Origin: Deefgea tanakiae
Lineage (GTDB): Bacteria > Pseudomonadota > Gammaproteobacteria > Burkholderiales > Chitinibacteraceae
NCBI RefSeq assembly: GCF_019665765.1
Contig: NZ_CP081150.1
Location: 248,001 to 312,000 of the forward strand
DNA: 64,000 nt
Direction: 5' to 3'
Positions 52,722 to 64,000 of the stretch are shown in pieces. A model generated the notes under the pieces. It saw only the letters and a list, made by a program, of their open reading frames with translations. It was not told where the DNA came from and ran no database searches. How positions within the stretch are numbered: the first letter of the stretch is position 1; each line of letters opens with the position of its first letter. The position numbers and the translations under genes are program-made.

Positions 52722-54881
52722 TCAGCATGCAAGTGCCTTCACTTCAGCATAAAGTGCTTTCAAGTGTGAAGAACCCATGTCTAAAATCGGCTCATACATG
52801 AACGAGTTCAAGTGAATATTCTCTGGTGTAATAAGATTAACTTGTTCAAGTGTATCAATTTCTTCTGAGGTACCAAGTGTGGATTCCTTATACTTCTTTA
52901 GAAGGCTAATGGTTTGATTCTTGGTTATGTTATCAACAAAATCTTGATTGTTAATTCGTTTAATCATATGCTGTTCTGCTAACAGGCGAATGGCAATTGA
53001 AAGAACAATTTTCATCTCCAATTCTAAATGATTATCGTCTTCGTCGATAATCTTTTCAGACTCTTCACAGAGGAGTTCAAAAACAGTCTTATTTGGCGGA
53101 GTAAGCACCAGGTTATTTTTGTCGATTAATACTCTTTTGTAGATTTCACAAAGATCATTTAGGGTTATTGTGTAGGTATTCGTTTTTATATGTAATAGCG
53201 AAGTTAATGTCGAATAATCATGTTTGTTTCCACAGTATTCAGCTAGGTTTCGAACAAACGATATGGCCGAAATACAGTAGGATGGCTCATTCAATTTCTT
53301 TTTCCAGAAAAGAAAAGGATTGTTTTGGTATTTCTCTGGACTTAGCTTCAACTTCCTCCCTGTTTTTGTGACAGTTAATTTGAATTCTTGCTTTAAACTA
53401 AGTCGCCCACTGACACTTCTATAGAAGTCGAAATTGTGGGACAAGAAAATGCAATTAAAACCTCCAGAATTAACGATGTCTTTTAAGTATTCGATGATTG
53501 CATACTTGTTTTTGTAATCGAATGAATCGGCGATATCATCTACTAAGAGTGTAGTCATGAGACCTTGTTTTTTTCTAGACTGAATTTCAAAGAGAATATT
53601 CAATATGTAAAGTGCACGTTTTTCACCCTGACTTAGAACTTTTAACAAGGAGTCTCTTGGTACATCTATTTCAACCTCTCCATCTGAGAACTTAAAGGCA
53701 ATGGACGGTTTTTTCCCTTTTAGGATTACATCCTCTTGATTAGATACCGACATTTTGAAGGGCACAAAGAAGCGCTTATTGAAAATGGCTACAACTCGCT
53801 CCCAGTCTGTTCGTTCTTCTTGTGCTTGTTTTACTGCAGCTTCGATTGTTACTTTGCCTGCTTTGTATTGAGCTAAAAATTGATCAAATAACTCTTTCTG
53901 ATCTACGAGATACGCAATCCAGATGTTTTTTTGAAGTTGCCTAAAGTTTTTTAATTCAGGTAATAGTTCTTGATTTTCAAAAAGGTACTCTCTAAATTTT
54001 CTGAGTTCGATGTTTTGTATTTTTTTATCAATCGCATCAAACTTTCCAGCAAGCTCTTTGTCCGTGAAGATCTTCTGGCGCTCATCATCTATTTTTTTCG
54101 TCAATTCTTCGGCAGAGCTAATTTCTTTTTTACCATTTTTGGTATTCAAGTTAATGGTGTGCTTTGCTGCGAAGAAACCGTTGTCGGCTAATTGTTTATT
54201 TACGGCACCCGCACTGTAGTGATTGAATTGTTTACTGAGTACATCTGACTTCAAAACTAAGTCGTTGTATCTTTGAATGTATTCTTCAAGCTGATCTTTG
54301 ATTACACCTGATTCGAGAAGAGCTACTGTCTTTTCATTGAAAATTTCACTGTAAATTAAGTCCGCTAACTTGGATGGTGCGGACTCAGAGATCTTCTGCT
54401 CCAAAGACTCTAATAAATCAGCAATGCTAGTTGCTCCAAAAGTCTTTAGGAGTTCAATTTCAGGAGTGAGTGTTCGTCCCGTTAATCCAGAAAGTTGTTT
54501 GAGTTTAGCAAAAAGCGTAGTCTGCTTTTCTGAAATCTGTTTGAGGGCATTATCATATTGTGTCTTGATAGCATTATTAACTAGCAGCAAAGAGCTTTGC
54601 TCTGAAGAAAACTCTTGGTTGTATGGCTCAATGACAAAGATGGACTCTGGAGTTAAGCTTATATCTGCGTCGTCGGTTATTTTTCGCAGGGAGGTACGGT
54701 CTGTGAAAATTAGATCACTAGATTCTCTTCCCTTTGCGTAATCATCAAAAGTTTTTGATAGTGAAGTTTTCATAAAGCCATTAGGTGCGTAAATCGCATA
54801 ACAGCTACTATTGGTGAAATCAAAGCAATATTTTAGCTCACTGATTCCGTAGCAGTTTTTTAGATCAATATTTAACTTCAT
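52722..54881 (-). CDS. AAA/SMC-like ATPase, probable defence or anticodon-nuclease-type protein
   Basis: A 719-residue ABC-type ATPase with a split nucleotide-binding domain around a coiled-coil middle (about residues 90-370). Walker A is APNGFMKTS (32-40), with Met where the glycine before Lys is normal. The signature LSQGEKRA lies near 415, Walker B LLVDD near 440 and the H-loop LSHNF near 478. This fits the AAA_13/RloC-PrrC superfamily; no zinc-hook cysteines are evident. The C-terminal 230 residues contain an RNLAE segment and an RLLAEQH segment that could be nuclease residues, unproven. Much more AT-rich than its neighbours, which suggests transfer. Single gene. Confidence 0.75.
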   Translation of the reverse strand: MKLNIDLKNCYGISELKYCFDFTNSSCYAIYAPNGFMKTSLSKTFDDYAKGRESSDLIFTDRTSLRKITDDADISLTPESIFVIEPYNQEFSSEQSSLLLVNNAIKTQYDNALKQISEKQTTLFAKLKQLSGLTGRTLTPEIELLKTFGATSIADLLESLEQKISESAPSKLADLIYSEIFNEKTVALLESGVIKDQLEEYIQRYNDLVLKSDVLSKQFNHYSAGAVNKQLADNGFFAAKHTINLNTKNGKKEISSAEELTKKIDDERQKIFTDKELAGKFDAIDKKIQNIELRKFREYLFENQELLPELKNFRQLQKNIWIAYLVDQKELFDQFLAQYKAGKVTIEAAVKQAQEERTDWERVVAIFNKRFFVPFKMSVSNQEDVILKGKKPSIAFKFSDGEVEIDVPRDSLLKVLSQGEKRALYILNILFEIQSRKKQGLMTTLLVDDIADSFDYKNKYAIIEYLKDIVNSGGFNCIFLSHNFDFYRSVSGRLSLKQEFKLTVTKTGRKLKLSPEKYQNNPFLFWKKKLNEPSYCISAISFVRNLAEYCGNKHDYSTLTSLLHIKTNTYTITLNDLCEIYKRVLIDKNNLVLTPPNKTVFELLCEESEKIIDEDDNHLELEMKIVLSIAIRLLAEQHMIKRINNQDFVDNITKNQTISLLKKYKESTLGTSEEIDTLEQVNLITPENIHLNSFMYEPILDMGSSHLKALYAEVKALAC

Positions 54882-54996: not shown

Positions 54997-57900
54997 TTAA
55001 TACACCACCAAACTCTTACCACCCGCCGTCTTCTGGACCAAAATCTTCGTCGCAATTCGTTCCGTCATTTCCTGCACGTGCGATATCACGCCGACTTTTC
55101 GGCCCATCGCTTGTAATCCATCCAGTGCATCCATCGCGACGCGTAGCGTTTCGGCGTCGAGGCTGCCGAAGCCTTCGTCGATGAAGAGCGATTCAACGCG
55201 CACGCGGTTGGATGACAGTGAGGCCAGACCCAAGGCCAGCGCCAGCGAGACGAGGAAAGATTCGCCGCCGGAGAGCGAATGCACCGAGCGCGCTTCATCG
55301 CCCATGTCTTGGTCGATCACCATCATCGCCAGCGTGTCGTTGATGCGTTGCAAGCGGTAGCGGCGCGAGAGTTGCTGTAAATGGCGGTTGGTGTAGGCGA
55401 GCAGTACGTCGAGCGTGTATTGCTGTGCGTAGTTTCTGAATTTTTTGCCGTCGGCTGAGCCGATTAAGTCACCGAGCTGCGCCCAGCGGCGTTGTTGGGT
55501 TTCTTGCGCGGCGATCTCGGTGAGTAGGCCAGCGGCGGTGCTGCGGCGTGCTTCGTCTTGGGCGATTTGCAATTGCAGCGCGGTGGCGGCGGTCTGAGCG
55601 GTTTGTTGCGCGGCGCTGATTTGCGTGGCTTGTGTTTCTAGCTCTGCCAAGCTTGGCGCAGGGCTGTGTTCGCTCGCAAACTCTTCGCTCGCTGTCTCTG
55701 GCTGTAGTGCGGCATGCGCGGTTTGTTGGCTGAGGCGTTCTTGCATGATGGTGTTGGCTTGCGCCAGCGTAGCATCCAGCGCCAGTAGGGCGGCGCGCTC
55801 TTGCGCTAACCATGCGGCATCAAACGCCAGCCATTCGCGCAAGCGGGCTTCGGTCAATCTTTGCGGCGACAAGCCGAGCCAGTGATCGAGCTGCTGCTGG
55901 GCGGTGTGCTGGGCTGCTGCGGCTTGCGCTTGCTGATTTTGCGCCTGCGTGAGGGCTTCTTGGGCGCGGGTGGCTTGCTGTGTTGCGGCTTGAAAGTCTT
56001 GCTGGGCTTGGTGGTGCGCTGCTTTGGCGTGCGCCAAGGTTTGCGCCAATTGCGCTTCAACGGCGTGTACGGCTTGCCCTGCAAATAAGCCCGAGCGCTC
56101 AGTGCTTAGGGCCGCTATGGCGGCGTGTTCGGCTTGGTGCTGCTCGCTGAGTTGTTGCTGCGCCAGCGTGGCTTTGTCATTCGCTTGGCGTATAGCGGCC
56201 AGCGCTTGGGCGAGTAGCTCGGTGTCTTGCTGGCCTTTGAGGTAGGCGCTGTGCTGCATCGACCATGTTTGCGCCATCTGCTGCCACTCGGCCTGCATCG
56301 CTGCGGGATTATTGGCCCAGCTCAATTGTAAATCGGCCCAATCACGACCATCGGGAAAGTGCTGCAGCGCGGGCGCGAGTTGCGCCAACATGCGCTCAAC
56401 CCGCTGGCTTTCTTGCTGCTGCGTGGCCTGTGCCGTAGCGAGCTGGGCGCTGATTTGCACCAGCGCCGCTTGCTGGGTTTGGACAAGGTCTTTTTGCGCT
56501 TGATGCGCTTGGTTGGCTTGCTCGTAGCGGGTTTGCGCGGTTTCTTTGACTTGCAAAGCCTGTTGCCAAGCCTGCTCTTTGGCGCTGATGGACTCAATCT
56601 GTGTTTGCAGTGCGCTTGTTTGTGCGGCGAACCAGGCCGCGATTTGCGCGGCATCGTCAAGGCTGGCGATTTCAGTATGCAGCGGGTGCGCCGCCCATTG
56701 CTTGCGCAATGCGGCGATGCTGGTGTTGAGGGTGCTCAGTTCAGCATCCAGCAATTGTGCAGTGCGCTGCAGATTGCTCAGCTCGGCGGTGAGCGTGGCT
56801 TGCTGCTTGAGCGCGGTTTGCTGCTGTTGGCGGCAATCGGCAACTTCGGCTTGCAGCCCCACCAGTAGCGTATGCAATTGCGGGTTTTCAGTGGCATAGG
56901 GGTGATCCAATGCGCCACACACCGGGCAGGGCGCATCCGGCTGCAAGCTTTCGCGCAGTGTTTCTACATTCTGATTGCATGCGGCTTCGGCCAGCTTGAG
57001 GGCGCGCTCGGCTTGCATCAGCGCCGCAGCGAATATCGGCAGTTGTGTGCTGGCTTGCGCCAAACCGTGTTCAGATTGTTGCCGACTGGTTTGATTTTCT
57101 TGTTGCTGCGCAGTGAGTTTAGCGACTTGCCTTGTGTGCTCACTCAGTCGCTGCAACAGCGATTCGGCGTTTGTTAAATCTTCGCGCCGATTGGCGCATT
57201 GGGTTTTAGCTGCGGGCAGTGCGCTGATGTCGATGCTGGCCAATTGCGCGTTGGCGGTTTGCCGATGTTGCTCGGCAGCCTGTGCGGCGAATTCAGTGCT
57301 GGCTAGTGCGCTGCTGGCCTTGGCAATGCTGTCGCTGAGCGCTTGGGTGTCTTGTGCCAACTGTATTTGCGTTTGGCTAGCTTGTTGGGCGGCGATCTGT
57401 GCTTGCGCAGCTTGCTGGAGTAATACCTGATACGCAGGCCAATTTTCGGCTAGATTTTTACTGTGGGTATTTGACTCTAGCCATTGCTTGGTATTGTCTA
57501 GAAGCAAATACCCATTGCTGAGTTCGGCCTGCTTTTTTGCTTGCTCTTGGGTGCTGGCGGCAAGGGTGAGTTTGGCTTGGTCTAGATTGCTTTGCAGTAC
57601 ATTTAGAGCAGGCAAGCGTGCTTCGATACTCGCATCGAGCTTTTTGGCTGCGTCGAGCTGCGGCGCAGCGGCGCTTTGCGCTTGTTCGGCAGCGGTGTAT
57701 TGGCTTTGTGTGAGTTGCAGCGCGGTTTGACTGCTGGTGCTGGCGGCGTTGGCCGATTCAAGCTGGCTTTGACTCACTGCAATCGTTGTCTGCGCTTGCG
57801 CTACCGCGCCGCTGCTGCGATCTAGCTCGGCAATCAGTGGTCTGGCCGATTGCACCGCATCGAGTTGCTGCAGTTGCTCGCGCCGGGGCGCGGCCTCTGC

Positions 57901-58764
57901 ATGGATGTGTTCTGCATTTTGTTTGTTGAGCTGCGCGGTATGCACGCTTTGCGTGATTTTTTCAGCGTCTTGGTGCCAGCGGATTGCGCTACTGAGCTGC
58001 GCGAGCTGCAAATCCAGCGCCGCGAGTTGCTGCTGCGCGGCTTGGCTTTCAAGATCAATCGCCTTGCGGGTTTCACTATCGAGCGGTTTTTGATCGGCAA
58101 GGCGGTCATTAATCCGTTGCAAAGCTTGCAGCTCTAATTTGGCGCGGGCAAAAGCGCGTTGCGAGAGCACGCTATAAATCGTGCTGCCGGTCAGCGTTTC
58201 GAGTAGCTCGCCGCGCTCGTTATCGTCGGCTTTTAAAAAGCTGGAAAACTCATTTTGCGCCAGCAACACGGCGCGGGTGAATTGCTCAAAACTCAGACCA
58301 ATACGCTGGATGATTTCGGCTTTCACCTCGCGATTGGTGCCGCCAATCGGCTGCAATTCCGGTAGCTGGTGTAAGGTCATTTTGCTAGCTTGCAGGCTGC
58401 CTTTGATGCTGCCGCGCGCACGGCGTACGCTCCAGCGCGATCGATAGGTCGCGCCATCGTTGCCGACAAAATCAACCTCGGCAAAACCCTCAGCACAACC
58501 GCGGCGCAAGAGATTGGCCGCGTCTTGGTGCGTGATCAGATCCGTGCCATCGGGCAACGTTTTGCCGCCACCGGCTTTCAGCAGGCGCGGCGTGCTCTCA
58601 TACAGCGCCATGCACAGCGCATCGAGCAGGGTGCTTTTGCCCGCGCCCGTTGGGCCGCTAATGGCAAACAGCCCAGCTGATTTGAGCGGCTCTTGCTCAA
58701 AATCGACACCAAAATCACCAGCCAGCGAAGCCAGATTTTTACCGCGAATAGCGAGGATTTTCAT
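54997..58764 (-). CDS. sbcC: Exonuclease subunit SbcC
   Basis: A 1255-residue SMC-like ATPase. N-terminal Walker A GPTGAGKSTLLDAL, very long Gln/Ala-rich coiled coils with the zinc hook CPVCGALDHP near residue 613, and a C-terminal half with signature LSGGESFLVSLALALGLA, Walker B LFIDEGFGSLD and ISHV. With SbcD it forms the Mre11-Rad50-like complex that cuts hairpins and protein-blocked DNA ends. Its start overlaps the sbcD stop (ATGA). The coiled-coil arms are strongly Gln-rich, giving long false frames on the other strand. Confidence 0.96.
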   Translation of the reverse strand: MKILAIRGKNLASLAGDFGVDFEQEPLKSAGLFAISGPTGAGKSTLLDALCMALYESTPRLLKAGGGKTLPDGTDLITHQDAANLLRRGCAEGFAEVDFVGNDGATYRSRWSVRRARGSIKGSLQASKMTLHQLPELQPIGGTNREVKAEIIQRIGLSFEQFTRAVLLAQNEFSSFLKADDNERGELLETLTGSTIYSVLSQRAFARAKLELQALQRINDRLADQKPLDSETRKAIDLESQAAQQQLAALDLQLAQLSSAIRWHQDAEKITQSVHTAQLNKQNAEHIHAEAAPRREQLQQLDAVQSARPLIAELDRSSGAVAQAQTTIAVSQSQLESANAASTSSQTALQLTQSQYTAAEQAQSAAAPQLDAAKKLDASIEARLPALNVLQSNLDQAKLTLAASTQEQAKKQAELSNGYLLLDNTKQWLESNTHSKNLAENWPAYQVLLQQAAQAQIAAQQASQTQIQLAQDTQALSDSIAKASSALASTEFAAQAAEQHRQTANAQLASIDISALPAAKTQCANRREDLTNAESLLQRLSEHTRQVAKLTAQQQENQTSRQQSEHGLAQASTQLPIFAAALMQAERALKLAEAACNQNVETLRESLQPDAPCPVCGALDHPYATENPQLHTLLVGLQAEVADCRQQQQTALKQQATLTAELSNLQRTAQLLDAELSTLNTSIAALRKQWAAHPLHTEIASLDDAAQIAAWFAAQTSALQTQIESISAKEQAWQQALQVKETAQTRYEQANQAHQAQKDLVQTQQAALVQISAQLATAQATQQQESQRVERMLAQLAPALQHFPDGRDWADLQLSWANNPAAMQAEWQQMAQTWSMQHSAYLKGQQDTELLAQALAAIRQANDKATLAQQQLSEQHQAEHAAIAALSTERSGLFAGQAVHAVEAQLAQTLAHAKAAHHQAQQDFQAATQQATRAQEALTQAQNQQAQAAAAQHTAQQQLDHWLGLSPQRLTEARLREWLAFDAAWLAQERAALLALDATLAQANTIMQERLSQQTAHAALQPETASEEFASEHSPAPSLAELETQATQISAAQQTAQTAATALQLQIAQDEARRSTAAGLLTEIAAQETQQRRWAQLGDLIGSADGKKFRNYAQQYTLDVLLAYTNRHLQQLSRRYRLQRINDTLAMMVIDQDMGDEARSVHSLSGGESFLVSLALALGLASLSSNRVRVESLFIDEGFGSLDAETLRVAMDALDGLQAMGRKVGVISHVQEMTERIATKILVQKTAGGKSLVVY

Positions 58765-60005
58765 TGCGCATCCTCCGTATCCAGCATCAGCTCAGCAAAG
58801 GCGGCCACCAGCTCGGTCGGCGCGTCGGCAGCAAATTTTTGCTGGTAGAGCCGCGCAAAAATGGCGTCGGGCTGCAATTGTTCGAGTTCGGCTAAGGCTT
58901 CCGTTTCGCTTGGCGCATTTTTGCTTGCGCTGAAACTGGTTTCAATTTTGGCTAGGCGTACGGGTTTGCCTTCGAGCGCGGCTTCGATTTGCGCGCGTAA
59001 TCCCGGCTCAGGCTCATCGAGCCGCACCCGTACTTCTAAATAGGGGTGTTGCTGTGGGGCTAAATCGTCTGCAAATTCTAAAGCAGTGAGTTCGCTCAGC
59101 ACTGCGGCCAGTGGTGCTGGCTTTGCTGGAATTCGCAGCAGCTCCACCGCGCGCGGAATTGCTAGCGGGGTAATTTCGCTGGCGGTTTCGCCATCGAGAT
59201 CAATGCGCAGCACTTGATGCGGATAGGCCACTTCGGCAAACGACATCGGGATCGGGCTGCCGCAGTATCGAATGTGATCCTGTTTACCGACGGTTTGGGC
59301 TAGATGAAGATGGCCGAGCGCGGCATAGGCGATATTCGCGTCAAACATACTTGCAGACAGCGGTTCCGTGCCACCGATGACAATCGGCCGCTCGGAATCT
59401 TGCGATATTTCGCCGCCGACCATATGGCAATGGCCGAGTGCAATAATAGGCTGGCCTAGTTGGCGAAGGCTCAGCGCATGCTGCAATGCTTGTTGGTACA
59501 GCAACGTAATGCCCGCCATATATGGATCGCGGCCTTCGGGTAGATCAACAAGTCGTGGCACATCGCCGGGGCGCAGAAACGGAATCGCCAAGCACCAAGC
59601 GGCAATTTCGCCGTGTCGGTTTTTGAGTGGCACGATGAGGCGATTCAGATCAACGTCGCCCTCTGCGGTGCGCGGAACAAAGCCGATCACACAGGCGTCC
59701 ATCGCCTCTAAAAACGGCGCAGGCGCTTCAAGCCGGCCGGGCGAATCATGATTGCCCGCGATGATGACAATATTCAAATGCGGAACGCGCGTTTTGGCCT
59801 GCTGCAAAAAGCGGTAAAACTGTTTTTGAGCAGCCGCCGATGGATTGGCATTGTCGAAAATATCACCGGGAATAAGCAAGGCATCGGCTTGTTCAGCCAC
59901 CAAGGTGTCGAGTAACCAATCTAAAAAACACTGATGCTCAAAATCGCGTTCGAAAGAATGGAGTGTCTGGCCGAGATGCCAGTCCGAGGTGTGTATAAGG
60001 CGCAT
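58761..60005 (-). CDS. sbcD: Exonuclease subunit SbcD
   Basis: A 414-residue Mre11-type metallophosphatase nuclease. Metal-binding motifs in order: DWHLGQ, GDIFDN, AGNHDS, and the GHCHM and LGHLH segments. The C-terminal region binds SbcC. First gene of the sbcD-sbcC pair; overlap of 4 bp with sbcC. ATG at 60005 gives the family start MRLIHTSDWHLGQ. Confidence 0.96.
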   Translation of the reverse strand: MRLIHTSDWHLGQTLHSFERDFEHQCFLDWLLDTLVAEQADALLIPGDIFDNANPSAAAQKQFYRFLQQAKTRVPHLNIVIIAGNHDSPGRLEAPAPFLEAMDACVIGFVPRTAEGDVDLNRLIVPLKNRHGEIAAWCLAIPFLRPGDVPRLVDLPEGRDPYMAGITLLYQQALQHALSLRQLGQPIIALGHCHMVGGEISQDSERPIVIGGTEPLSASMFDANIAYAALGHLHLAQTVGKQDHIRYCGSPIPMSFAEVAYPHQVLRIDLDGETASEITPLAIPRAVELLRIPAKPAPLAAVLSELTALEFADDLAPQQHPYLEVRVRLDEPEPGLRAQIEAALEGKPVRLAKIETSFSASKNAPSETEALAELEQLQPDAIFARLYQQKFAADAPTELVAAFAELMLDTEDAQ

Positions 60006-60334: not shown

Positions 60335-60760
60335 TTAGGGGGCAGGTGTCTGATCCTTTAATAGTAAGGTTTGGCTGTAAATTAAAAAATCTTCAAGATG
60401 TTGAGTGATTACTGCAATCGTGATTGGGAGCTGTAAGGTCTGATAGTCATGGACTGCGATATTTCTAAACCCCACCATTTTTTGCAGACTCGTTGCCAAC
60501 TCTGCATCGATCCATTTAGCTGTGGCAAGTAAGGTAAATACATCACGGGCGCTTTGTGGTACGCCTAATTTCTCACGGCGAATTAAATGTTGCCCCATAT
60601 CGAGTGCTGCTTCACAGGCGCGTTGAATATTTAGGATTGCTGCATCTTGGCGAGTGAAGTCAGTATCAAAGCTAGCTACGTCTTTATGATATTCCTCTCT
60701 AGCACGCATCACGCAACGCTCAATCGTCGCCGCTTTATTGATTAAAACATCATCAGCCAT
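60335..60760 (-). CDS. hepT: HepT-family HEPN ribonuclease toxin
   Basis: A 141-residue all-helical HEPN protein (DUF86). The active site RNIAVHDY matches R-x4-H-x-Y exactly. HepT toxins cut RNA and are neutralised when MntA-type antitoxins transfer AMP to the Tyr of this motif. The ATG at 60760 has GAGG upstream and is inside the antitoxin gene's last 8 bp, so the two are translationally coupled with the antitoxin first. Confidence 0.92.
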   Translation of the reverse strand: MADDVLINKAATIERCVMRAREEYHKDVASFDTDFTRQDAAILNIQRACEAALDMGQHLIRREKLGVPQSARDVFTLLATAKWIDAELATSLQKMVGFRNIAVHDYQTLQLPITIAVITQHLEDFLIYSQTLLLKDQTPAP

Positions 60761-61178
60761 ATACGTTACCTCGTTGCCCAATATCGGTGAGTACACCGGC
60801 TCGTGCCGTGTCTAGATTAGTTTTTTCACTCAAAATGAAACTTTCGAAAATGGCTGCTTGCGAGTCCCGCGCCCACAATCGTTGCCCTTGGGTGATGACT
60901 TGATATTGCATCACTGTTGAAGCTTGGCGCAAGTCAATCAGATCGACATCTCGATTGATTACCGTTGCAATGGCTTGCCCAACTTCCCATAAAGCGACAG
61001 GCTCACTATTTCCTGCTAACAAGACAGCAAGATCAACATCGCTTTGCGCGTGAGCTTCGCCCTTGGCAAAACTGCCAAATAAATAGACAGCGAGCAAATT
61101 GGGATATGTGCTTTGGAGTTGCGCCAAGATACTTGCCAAGGGCAAAGATATTGATGGATTTTGCACGGTTACTGACAT
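60753..61178 (-). CDS. mntA: MntA-family nucleotidyltransferase antitoxin
   Basis: A 141-residue minimal nucleotidyltransferase with GSFAKGEAHAQSDVDLAV, the GS-x10-DxD motif of the MNT family, and a third conserved Asp region in RDVDLIDLRQAS. It AMPylates and silences HepT. The start at 61178 (MSVTVQN) is the best fit to the family; an in-frame ATG at 61217 would add 13 residues. Neither start has a strong ribosome-binding site. Confidence 0.9.
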   Translation of the reverse strand: MSVTVQNPSISLPLASILAQLQSTYPNLLAVYLFGSFAKGEAHAQSDVDLAVLLAGNSEPVALWEVGQAIATVINRDVDLIDLRQASTVMQYQVITQGQRLWARDSQAAIFESFILSEKTNLDTARAGVLTDIGQRGNVYG

Positions 61179-61269
61179 GTGTGGATCCAAGAGGAGTATG
61201 TGATCGCAGTGTTCCATTATAAGCGGTTCTAGGCGGAATTGATTTTTTCAGTTTACTTCGGATGCCATC

Positions 61270-61962: not shown

Positions 61963-64000
61963 ATGTTTCATTTTATACTTTTTGTTATTGCTGCAATAAT
62001 TATTTTCGTTTTAGTAAAGAAAACATACCAAGTTATTTTGGGCGTCTTATTTGGATCTTTTTACTTTGCAGGGTTTGTTGTAAATAAGATACTTAAGGTA
62101 ATGAAGGTAAGGTTGGTTTTTTTGTTTCTTACTTTTGTTGTTGGTGCTTTATTATCTTTGGCTGCAGAGTCAATTCTTTTCTTTTTATCGTCGGTGCTGT
62201 TTATTGTTGCATTGTATTGCCATCTTCAGCGAACTGTTAAAGAGAGCATATTTACTGGGTTTAATGATGGTTTTGATAAATCAATAGATGAATTTTACAT
62301 TGGTGTATTTTCTGCTGCTTTTATTATTGGTATTGCTTTTGTATTGAAGTTGACAGGCACAACGAATTACTACTTGGATTATATTTCACTTGCTGTTGGA
62401 GTTTTTCTAATGGCGGTGAAAATTAATGATGAGATCGAGCGCGCGTCATTAATTACACTAGTTGCTAAGGAGTTTGGCACTACTGAAAAGCATTGTTATC
62501 AGGGGCATGTAGCAGAGTTAACTAAGAACAATACAGGTGATCAATCTGATGTTGCAAATGTCTACAATTTAGTGGCACAGAAATTCATAGATATGGGTAG
62601 TCATACGGAAGTAACTCTTAACAACAACAGATGGTTTGTAACAAATAAACTAAATTCTGATATTAAAAATCTGATAAGAGTTCGATCGATAAGTAGTACT
62701 AGATTACCACCCTTAGAGCTAGCTAACCTGGTCAAAAAAGATCTAGGCACTTCAAAAGAAGAATCTTTAGACTATATTTTCCGCTACGTAACACATGGTG
62801 ACGTTCTTGATTTTGAGGAGGGTAAATTTTTTGTTGCCTATAGAAATTATAACGCAATTAAGAAATGTACATCATGCGGAATTGCTCATATATCAAATAG
62901 TTCAAATGTGGAAAGTGGATCTGAATGGTTTTGCTCTGATATATGTGAGAACACCGAGAGTGCATGCATTGAAATAAAAAATAAACCAATGCAAGAGTTT
63001 CTTTCTGATGCTGCTGCAGTAAGTTTTACCCTGATGGAAGGGGCTGCAGCATGGAGTAACAACCATAAATTATTTGCGACAGGAGGGCAAGGGCATGGCT
63101 TTGCAGCGGAAAATGCAAATAATAAAATCGATACCCTAATGATGAAAGATGCAAAAATCGTAGGTGGAGATAATGCAAAAAATGGGGCAGATAGAATTGT
63201 AGATGGCCAGAGTCTTCAGACAAAATATTGCGATACAGGTGCCCGTTCTGTTGGAGCTGCTTTTGATAATAAAGGTGATGGTCTGTATAGATATATTGAT
63301 TCATCAGGTGAGCCAATGATACTTGAAGTCCCTAAGGATCAATATGACAAAGCTGTTGAAACAATGGCGAAGAAAATTCAAGAAGGCAAAGTCCCTGGAG
63401 TTTCTAATCCTGCAGATGCCGAGAAATATGTCCGTGCGGGGCATCTAACTTATGATCAAGCAAAGAATATAACTCGCTTTGGAACGTTCGAATCAATAAC
63501 CTACGATATTTCAGAGGGTGTAATTGTTGGTAGTATTGCTGGTGGAATTAGTTTTGGAATTACTGCATTAGTTTCATATATGCAAACTAATGACAGCAAA
63601 TTGGCTTTACGCATAGCCACTATTCAGGCCGGAAAAACTTTTGGTAAAACAATCTGTGTATATGTTGCCGCCCAGCAGTTACATAGAGTATCGGCTGTAC
63701 AAGGTATGTTAAAGATAGTTGATGTAAGTTCTTTGTCTTCATCATCAAGGGCTTTATTACAAGATGGCTTAGGCGTGACTCACAATGCAAATGGGATTGC
63801 TGGTCATGGTGCAATCAACAAAGCCTTAAGAGGTACGATTATTACCTCTATTGCGGTTATAGCTGTTACAACAGGGCCAGATCTTATTAAGATGGCTAGA
63901 GGGCATATTTCAAATGCTCAATTTATTAAAAATTTAACGGTAACAACTTCAAGTGTTACGGGAGGTGTAGTTGGCTCAATGGCAGGAGGAGCATTAGGGG
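61963..64000 (+). CDS. Large membrane protein with Cys4 zinc motif and candidate PD-(D/E)XK nuclease motif (3' end cut)
   Basis: Open for 679 codons to the window edge; not a recognised family. Residues 1-155 hold about five hydrophobic helices. Residues 155-300 are soluble. Next come Cys302-x2-Cys305 and Cys324-x3-Cys328, a treble-clef-like zinc pattern. Residues 377-423 read as a PD-(D/E)XK core: Glu383 in GFAAEN, Asp410 in GADRIV, Gln419-Thr-Lys421 in LQTKYC. A helical region with EVPKDQYDKAV and GHLTYDQAKNI follows, then glycine-rich hydrophobic stretches (516-540, 624-642, 664-679). Clearly AT-rich, beside an integrase remnant and a toxin-antitoxin pair. The start (ATG 61963, AAGGG upstream) is probable. 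Function unknown; a membrane-held nuclease is inferred. Confidence 0.75.
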   Translation, partial: MFHFILFVIAAIIIFVLVKKTYQVILGVLFGSFYFAGFVVNKILKVMKVRLVFLFLTFVVGALLSLAAESILFFLSSVLFIVALYCHLQRTVKESIFTGFNDGFDKSIDEFYIGVFSAAFIIGIAFVLKLTGTTNYYLDYISLAVGVFLMAVKINDEIERASLITLVAKEFGTTEKHCYQGHVAELTKNNTGDQSDVANVYNLVAQKFIDMGSHTEVTLNNNRWFVTNKLNSDIKNLIRVRSISSTRLPPLELANLVKKDLGTSKEESLDYIFRYVTHGDVLDFEEGKFFVAYRNYNAIKKCTSCGIAHISNSSNVESGSEWFCSDICENTESACIEIKNKPMQEFLSDAAAVSFTLMEGAAAWSNNHKLFATGGQGHGFAAENANNKIDTLMMKDAKIVGGDNAKNGADRIVDGQSLQTKYCDTGARSVGAAFDNKGDGLYRYIDSSGEPMILEVPKDQYDKAVETMAKKIQEGKVPGVSNPADAEKYVRAGHLTYDQAKNITRFGTFESITYDISEGVIVGSIAGGISFGITALVSYMQTNDSKLALRIATIQAGKTFGKTICVYVAAQQLHRVSAVQGMLKIVDVSSLSSSSRALLQDGLGVTHNANGIAGHGAINKALRGTIITSIAVIAVTTGPDLIKMARGHISNAQFIKNLTVTTSSVTGGVVGSMAGGALG

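What the first reader, a model, noticed from the sequence alone, without database searches (positions are those of the whole stretch)
61963..64000. AT-rich membrane protein with zinc motif and candidate PD-(D/E)XK nuclease core beside an integrase remnant
The frame is uninterrupted for over 2 kb and combines N-terminal membrane helices, a Cys4 motif (302, 305, 324, 328), and a Glu383 / Asp410 / Gln419-x-Lys421 pattern with the spacing of PD-(D/E)XK nucleases, then C-terminal glycine-rich hydrophobic segments. I know no named system with this order. Location in a mobile-looking island suggests a defence or conflict effector acting at the membrane.
Basis: partly seen in the sequence, partly recalled or inferred. 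Interest (0 to 1): 0.8.

Follow-up and report, generated by a model that had tools for sequence, protein, structure and literature searches.

The report
YeeR-family membrane-anchored nuclease, probable phage defence
The gene encodes a full-length member of a common but uncharacterised bacterial family (E. coli YeeR) that looks like a DNA-cutting enzyme anchored in the cell membrane, probably there to cut invading phage or plasmid DNA.

Summary
The frame is an 805-aa gene (genome 309963-312380) that runs past the window end, and it is a full-length YeeR-family protein. Of 5,426 E. coli genomes, 2,560 match the E. coli gene (1,780 over at least 80% of it); K-12 copies are truncated. The passages read give no function for YeeR. 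Predicted structure puts them in the alpha-beta-beta-beta-alpha-beta order of PD-(D/E)XK nucleases. The domain is a remote homologue of PDC-M09B, a PADLOC phage-defence candidate, with the four residues aligned. Foldseek found no significant PDB match, so the fold call rests on sequence and element order. Predicted layout: membrane helices, two winged-helix-like units, Cys4, nuclease, glycine-zipper membrane domain. Some Firmicute relatives carry instead an N-terminal domain of BnzA (Bunzi defence system; 10 of 10 tested). WYL regulators lie near 18 of 94 loci, about 0.9 genes expected. Best explanation: a membrane-anchored nuclease that cuts incoming DNA, working like SNIPE but not a member of it. 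Defence and DNA cleavage are inferred; nothing was tested at the bench.

The parts
61963..64000 (+). YeeR-family gene, residues 1-679 of 805; continues to genome 312380 (L002:9963-12380)
61966..62481 (+). residues 2-173: five long helices, N-terminal membrane anchor
   Evidence: hydropathy; model helices 2-47, 50-68, 71-97, 105-131, 136-173
62488..62856 (+). residues 176-298: two helix-helix-strand-strand units, read as tandem winged-helix domains
   Evidence: secondary structure; Foldseek hits such as BlaI, SelB, ESCRT-II, PyrSV gp04 (prob 0.84-0.98, E 0.078 or more; aligned ranges not shown)
62866..62946 (+). residues 302-328: Cys4 motif, probable zinc knuckle (long form only)
63091..63387 (+). 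residues 377-475: PD-(D/E)XK-like nuclease core
63109..63111 (+). E383, predicted active-site residue on the first helix
63190..63192 (+). D410, predicted metal ligand immediately before the second strand
63217..63225 (+). Q419-T420-K421, predicted (E/Q)-x-K motif; Q419 in the third strand, K421 right after it in the model
63505..64000 (+). start of residues 515-715: hydrophobic helices and glycine zipper, seen in the averages of both the long and the other forms; rest lies beyond the window

Best explanation
The gene encodes a full-length YeeR-family protein: a metal-dependent PD-(D/E)XK-type nuclease held at the inner membrane on both sides of its catalytic domain, by N-terminal membrane helices and by a C-terminal glycine-zipper membrane domain. 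Two winged-helix domains and a zinc knuckle between the anchor and the nuclease would bind DNA. Most likely mechanism: the protein waits at the membrane and cuts foreign DNA (phage, possibly plasmid) as it enters, so that location, rather than sequence or modification, separates foreign DNA from the chromosome. Shown by computation here: family membership, conserved residues, predicted secondary-structure order, hydrophobic segments, purifying selection, modular N-termini, association with defence-type genes. Inferred: that it is catalytically active, that DNA is the substrate, that the winged helices are real and bind DNA, that the Cys4 binds zinc, and that phage or plasmid entry is the trigger.
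For: E383/D410/Q419/K421 invariant in 92 of 92 distinct homologues that span them. Model of residues 340-530 (71 sequences, best of five models pLDDT 84.7) has helix 378-392 (E383), strands 397-399, 411-413 (D410 just before) and 416-420 (Q419 in it, K421 just after), helix 426-431, strand 453-456, helix 458-473; the model of residues 1-679 repeats this. Profile match to PDC-M09B: prob 95.4, E 1.8e-8, four residues aligned; with 7 of its 8 rows the score was 60.7, and 40 column-permuted controls scored at most 21.8. Hydrophobic C-terminal segments in the averages of both the 21 long and the 71 other forms. dN/dS 0.022-0.070 in the core (5 of 7 pairs computable) and 0.009-0.121 in residues 515-760 (6 of 7). 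N-termini of 10 of 10 tested Firmicute members, picked by eye, match BnzA within its residues 6-149, E 2.2e-13 to 2.6e-25. WYL regulators near 18 of 94 loci, 0.92 genes expected. YeeR follows WYL, PDC-M09A and PDC-M09B in L024, L027, L044 and L094. Many of the 50 listed Foldseek matches of the long model are winged-helix proteins. Membrane-bound nuclease defence is an established kind: SNIPE (PMC13190303, passages).
Against: No significant structural match for the core: 105 PDB matches with E 0.89 or more, led by PIN-domain proteins; PD-(D/E)XK entries are weak (Hjc prob 0.18). The other four core models scored lower (pLDDT 73.9-78.6). Clustering of the residues was not measured. Pfam shows no consistent family for the domain in 71 members and PADLOC has no model for the protein. 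A single M09B sequence gave only prob 3.0 and plain HMM scores of E 0.027-0.57; the link needs both profiles. In E. coli the gene sits between the flu-type adhesin and irmA and is reported or inferred to be co-transcribed with flu (PMC9431211, PMC8614746 passages), not an obvious defence setting. Most of the 94 loci have no WYL gene. Some dS values exceed 1 and are near saturation. No winged-helix match is significant by E-value.
Confidence: 0.55

Rival explanations
1. Abortive-infection effector: the membrane and BnzA-type parts sense envelope damage and activate the nuclease, which then cuts host DNA or RNA and stops the infected cell.
For: WYL regulators in the neighbourhood, variable N-termini that look like sensors, TerB matches in 4 of 81 scanned neighbour proteins.
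Against: No immunity partner was recognised, though none was searched for systematically; the gene is common in E. coli; the core is followed by hydrophobic segments in both group averages, which would keep it at the membrane.
Confidence: 0.2
2. The glycine-zipper domain is the effector (membrane permeabilisation) and the nuclease domain is a regulator or nucleic-acid sensor.
For: Dense G-xxx-G repeats at 663-702 and hydrophobic segments; weak PHROG matches in this region, of unknown function.
Against: The most conserved parts are 375-475 and 476-514 (pairwise identity 0.66 and 0.70 in long forms, 0.61 and 0.62 in the rest; region 616-715 has 0.57 and 0.49); the catalytic set is invariant, which a mere sensor would not need.
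Confidence: 0.1
3. Not defence: a prophage- or surface-related function, for example maintenance of the island or regulation tied to the flu-irmA operon.
For: Place between a flu-type adhesin and irmA in E. coli and on a Klebsiella plasmid (PMC6480617 and PMC9431211 passages); relatives in a phage record just downstream of an endolysin gene.
Against: No flu or irmA is listed in the four non-enterobacterial records examined, and IrmA matched 1 of 81 scanned neighbour proteins, in L028; flu was not searched for elsewhere. Other loci have WYL, BnzA-type or M09 partners.
Confidence: 0.12
4. The domain only resembles PD-(D/E)XK and has another chemistry or is a structural domain.
For: No significant PDB match by fold or by sequence.
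Against: Invariant E, D and Q-x-K on the expected elements; the same four are invariant in 8 of 8 PDC-M09B relatives and align with them.
Confidence: 0.1

Closest known systems
E. coli YeeR and full-length YeeR-family proteins
   Same: Same protein family and order; 47.8% identity over residues 203-797 with an E. coli protein of 838 aa.
   Different: K-12 copies match only the first 1,521 of 2,517 nt, which by the alignment keeps the nuclease core and loses the C-terminal membrane domain; the window protein is complete and lies in another context (HepT/nucleotidyltransferase pair upstream, LprI-like gene downstream).
PDC-M09A/B (PADLOC candidate system)
   Same: M09B is a remote homologue of the nuclease domain with the same four residues and, by eye, glycine-rich hydrophobic stretches downstream; clustered with YeeR in L024, L027, L044 and L094.
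   Different: M09B lacks the YeeR N-terminus and is detectable only by profile comparison; PADLOC finds neither M09A nor M09B in the window protein or its downstream neighbour.
SNIPE (DUF4041 plus GIY-YIG membrane-bound nuclease)
   Same: Membrane-anchored nuclease, nuclease the most conserved part, N-terminus variable (transmembrane or PH-like) (PMC13190303, passages). Mechanism here proposed by analogy.
   Different: Different nuclease type, no DUF4041 or GIY-YIG match, and an extra C-terminal membrane domain; not a member.
Bunzi (BnzA)
   Same: 10 of 10 tested Firmicute YeeR proteins carry the BnzA N-terminal domain; neighbours in L036 and L010 match it too.
   Different: The window protein has a different N-terminus (no BnzA match). 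That Bunzi is an experimentally shown defence system is recalled, not read here.

Membership tests
YeeR family | Homology over most of the length to full-length E. coli YeeR | tested here: met
   residues 203-797 at 47.8%; aligned over the whole length; RefSeq names some E. coli copies 'YeeR family protein'
PD-(D/E)XK nuclease superfamily | Conserved acidic residues and (D/E/Q)-x-K | tested here: met
   92 of 92 distinct spanning homologues
PD-(D/E)XK nuclease superfamily | alpha-beta-beta-beta-alpha-beta order with the residues on the right elements | tested here: met
   from DSSP of predicted models only
PD-(D/E)XK nuclease superfamily | Significant structural match to a known member | tested here: not met
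   none at E 0.001 or better; Hjc prob 0.18 and 0.16, CdiA-CT 0.11, VRR_NUC 0.04, Mus81-Eme1 0.03 (their fold class is recalled)
PD-(D/E)XK nuclease superfamily | Active-site residues cluster in space; metal-dependent cleavage | not testable with these tools
   model coordinates not available; no bench work
SNIPE | DUF4041 and GIY-YIG domains | tested here: not met
   no such Pfam match at E 1 or less
Bunzi | BnzA match in the window protein | tested here: not met
   0 PADLOC families at E 1 or less
PDC-M09 | M09A or M09B model matches the protein | tested here: not met
   no match; only remote homology through profiles

The most novel reading that the evidence does not exclude
The YeeR family is a second, independently evolved class of membrane-anchored nucleases that destroy DNA as it enters the cell: a PD-(D/E)XK nuclease pinned to the membrane by a glycine-zipper domain and fitted with exchangeable recognition modules (membrane helices plus tandem winged helices plus zinc in the long form, a BnzA-type domain in Firmicutes), present in many phyla and, over at least 80% of its length, in 1,780 of 5,426 complete E. 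coli genomes.
Probability: 0.4. Interest if true: 0.85.

Novelty: new variant of a known kind. Interest (0 to 1): 0.68.

Why it matters
YeeR is an orphan: 2,560 of 5,426 complete E. coli genomes have a match to the gene and 1,780 a match over at least 80% of it, and no function was given in the passages read. If it is a membrane nuclease that cuts entering DNA, a large share of E. coli and many other bacteria carry an unrecognised barrier to phages or plasmids, with a different nuclease and anchor from SNIPE. It is directly testable in a laboratory strain: E. coli B REL606 has a full-length copy. K-12, the usual test host, has only a truncated one, which could help explain why a function was missed.

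Tried and rejected
Single-sequence searches of Pfam, NCBIfam, PADLOC, PHROGs and the PDB gave no usable family. The first genome scan with the single protein found no relatives; the alignment query found 196, of which the best 80 were kept. The three non-own hits cover only the glycine-rich region and were dropped. Foldseek gave no significant hit for either model. Sequence search of residues 161-299 against the PDB gave nothing convincing. A PADLOC scan of outer genes, meant as a control (81 of 83 drawn from 388), proved unsuitable because these genes include matches to Cas5f, DarG, methyltransferases and PDC-S05, one protein each; it is context only. The inner-gene scans used 81 of 83 candidate operon neighbours. 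The WYL count was 19 of 94 loci; L069 was dropped because its four candidates have no Pfam WYL match, leaving 18. Of 13 loci checked, 12 were confirmed; L010 was confirmed; the other 5 rest on my HMM. The 34 genomes used for the WYL background (90 hits, 126.9 Mb, added by hand from rounded sizes) were picked by me, not at random, and hold more WYL loci than the whole set, so the whole-set figure (94 loci, 1.296 Mb) is quoted. Near-identical loci (L024 and L094; L013, L099 and L100) and the shared M09 cluster mean fewer independent cases than 94.

Considered and rejected: secreted or injected toxin (no toxin or secretion family; membrane segments on both sides of the core); member of SNIPE, Bunzi or PDC-M09 (defining features not met).

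Full report
What is there. In the genome it continues to 312380 and encodes 805 aa. A 200-aa gene follows after 14 bases; its Pfam LprI match is below the curated cut-off (20.9 bits against 22). G+C is 31-41% in windows from 61500 on, against 54-63% over the genes at 54997-60005, which I take by recall for SbcC and SbcD.

Family. tblastn finds E. coli and Klebsiella proteins (838 aa as annotated) at 48-49% identity over residues 203/219-797, and Lactococcus, Selenomonas, Monoglobus and phage proteins that match from residue 367-377 on. RefSeq names some E. coli copies 'YeeR family protein' and the K-12 copies 'protein YeeR'. Of 5,426 E. coli genomes, 2,560 have a match and 1,780 a match over at least 80% of the gene; K-12 copies match 1,521 of 2,517 nt, and a copy of the same type is seen in strain DSM 498. 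PMC6480617 (passages) also states that K-12 yeeR is truncated. PMC9431211 and PMC8614746 (passages) deal with transcription; none of these passages gives a function. 41 papers of the library hold the word; 30 were listed, three were opened.

Conservation. 94 loci plus the window protein gave 93 distinct rows. E383, D410, Q419 and K421 are each 92 of 92; so are G379, G401, N404, G408, R411, Y444, E455 and V456. D410 is partly favoured by the way loci were fetched. Mean pairwise identity in the 22 long forms is 0.28 in 1-160, 0.27 in 161-295, 0.66 in 375-475, 0.70 in 476-514 and 0.57 in 616-715. dN/dS (NG86) is 0.022-0.070 in 375-475 (5 of 7 pairs computable), 0.009-0.121 in 515-760 (6 of 7) and 0.063-0.171 in 1-300 (6 of 7); several dS values exceed 1. 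The core and the membrane part are thus under strong constraint.

Structure. The core model (71 sequences, pLDDT 84.7 for the best and 73.9-78.6 for the other four, pTM 0.76) has the order helix (E383), strand, strand (D410 just before it), strand (Q419 in it, K421 just after), helix, strand, helix. The model of residues 1-679 (55 sequences, pLDDT 84.6, pTM 0.55, so domain placement is uncertain) gives the same core and adds five N-terminal helices, two helix-helix-strand-strand units at 176-298, and helices 509-542, 545-574, 615-636 and 651-678, the last with low confidence. Foldseek for the core: 105 PDB matches, none with E below 0.89, headed by PIN-domain proteins; PD-(D/E)XK entries appear weakly (Hjc, CdiA-CT, VRR_NUC, Mus81-Eme1; class recalled), Hjc having the highest probability of the 50 listed, 0.18. 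Foldseek for the long model: 314 matches, none at E 0.001 or better; many of the 50 listed are winged-helix proteins (recalled), for example BlaI prob 0.98, PyrSV gp04 0.96, ESCRT-II up to 0.92; FokI also appears, prob 0.16. The winged-helix reading is a prediction from element order and weak matches.

Link to a defence candidate. In Enterobacter, Serratia and one viral contig the order is WYL, PDC-M09A, PDC-M09B, YeeR. M09B relatives from Enterobacter, Klebsiella, Leptolyngbya, Niallia, Rhodococcus and Lactococcus keep A-E, D and Q-x-K in 8 of 8. The profile comparison with the YeeR domain gives prob 95.4, E 1.8e-8, with E383, D410, Q419 and K421 aligned to E72, D109, Q118 and K120. With 7 of the 8 rows the score was 60.7 and 40 permuted controls reached 21.8. 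With one M09B sequence only, the match was not significant (prob 3.0). No paper in the library holds 'PDC-M09'.

Context. In 10 of 10 tested Firmicute members, picked by eye among those with N-termini of about 155 aa, this N-terminus matches BnzA. WYL genes lie near 18 of 94 loci (19 before one was dropped), against 0.92 genes expected; most loci therefore lack one. Sel1-type genes occur in 8 of 94 loci, small TerB-type genes in 4, M09A in 5 and M09B in 4. Record titles include Pseudomonadota, Bacillota, Campylobacterota, Spirochaetota and Cyanobacteriota, some of them metagenome bins that may be contaminated. In the window's own class only the own genome of 274 has one: patchy, mobile-looking. 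In the window a PDC-S46 homologue lies at 52722-54881 and a HepT-like/nucleotidyltransferase pair at 60335-61217.

Interpretation. The simplest reading is a membrane-tethered nuclease with DNA-binding domains near the membrane, which would meet DNA as it enters. SNIPE shows that this kind of defence exists (PMC13190303, passages; review PMC12904381, passages). YeeR is not SNIPE: other nuclease, other anchor. One search for papers that join glycine zipper, nuclease, anti-phage and transmembrane found one paper, on CoCoNuTs, whose passages describe another system. Defence, activity, substrate and trigger are inferred.

Noticed in passing
window 52722-54881 (-): Full-length match to PADLOC candidate PDC-S46 (E 4.6e-268), AT-rich and beside G+C-rich genes.
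   Followed up: no
window 60335-61217 (-): HepT-like RNase and nucleotidyltransferase genes, a probable toxin-antitoxin pair.
   Followed up: no
L002:8433-8637 and L002:13054-13258 (window 60433-60637 and genome 313054-313258): A 205-nt direct repeat (85%) from within the HepT gene flanks the yeeR and LprI-like genes, as if the cassette had been inserted or duplicated.
   Followed up: partly
L002:14248-17325 (beyond the window): A transposase-like gene pair (IS21 type, recalled) beside a 228-aa integrase that ends before its catalytic domain.
   Followed up: partly
L013, L099, L100: A gut phage record and two viral contigs carry the same 650-aa YeeR relative; in L013 it lies just downstream of an endolysin gene and near a gene annotated as DNA invertase.
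   Followed up: no
L109:5141-7437: On a Klebsiella plasmid an M09A/B-like pair lies about 3.6 kb from terE, terD, terC and terB.
   Followed up: no
L044 and L095: YeeR copies in a Serratia genome and a viral contig match only as far as residue 494, so they seem to lack the C-terminal membrane domain; in L044 M09A and M09B are beside it.
   Followed up: no
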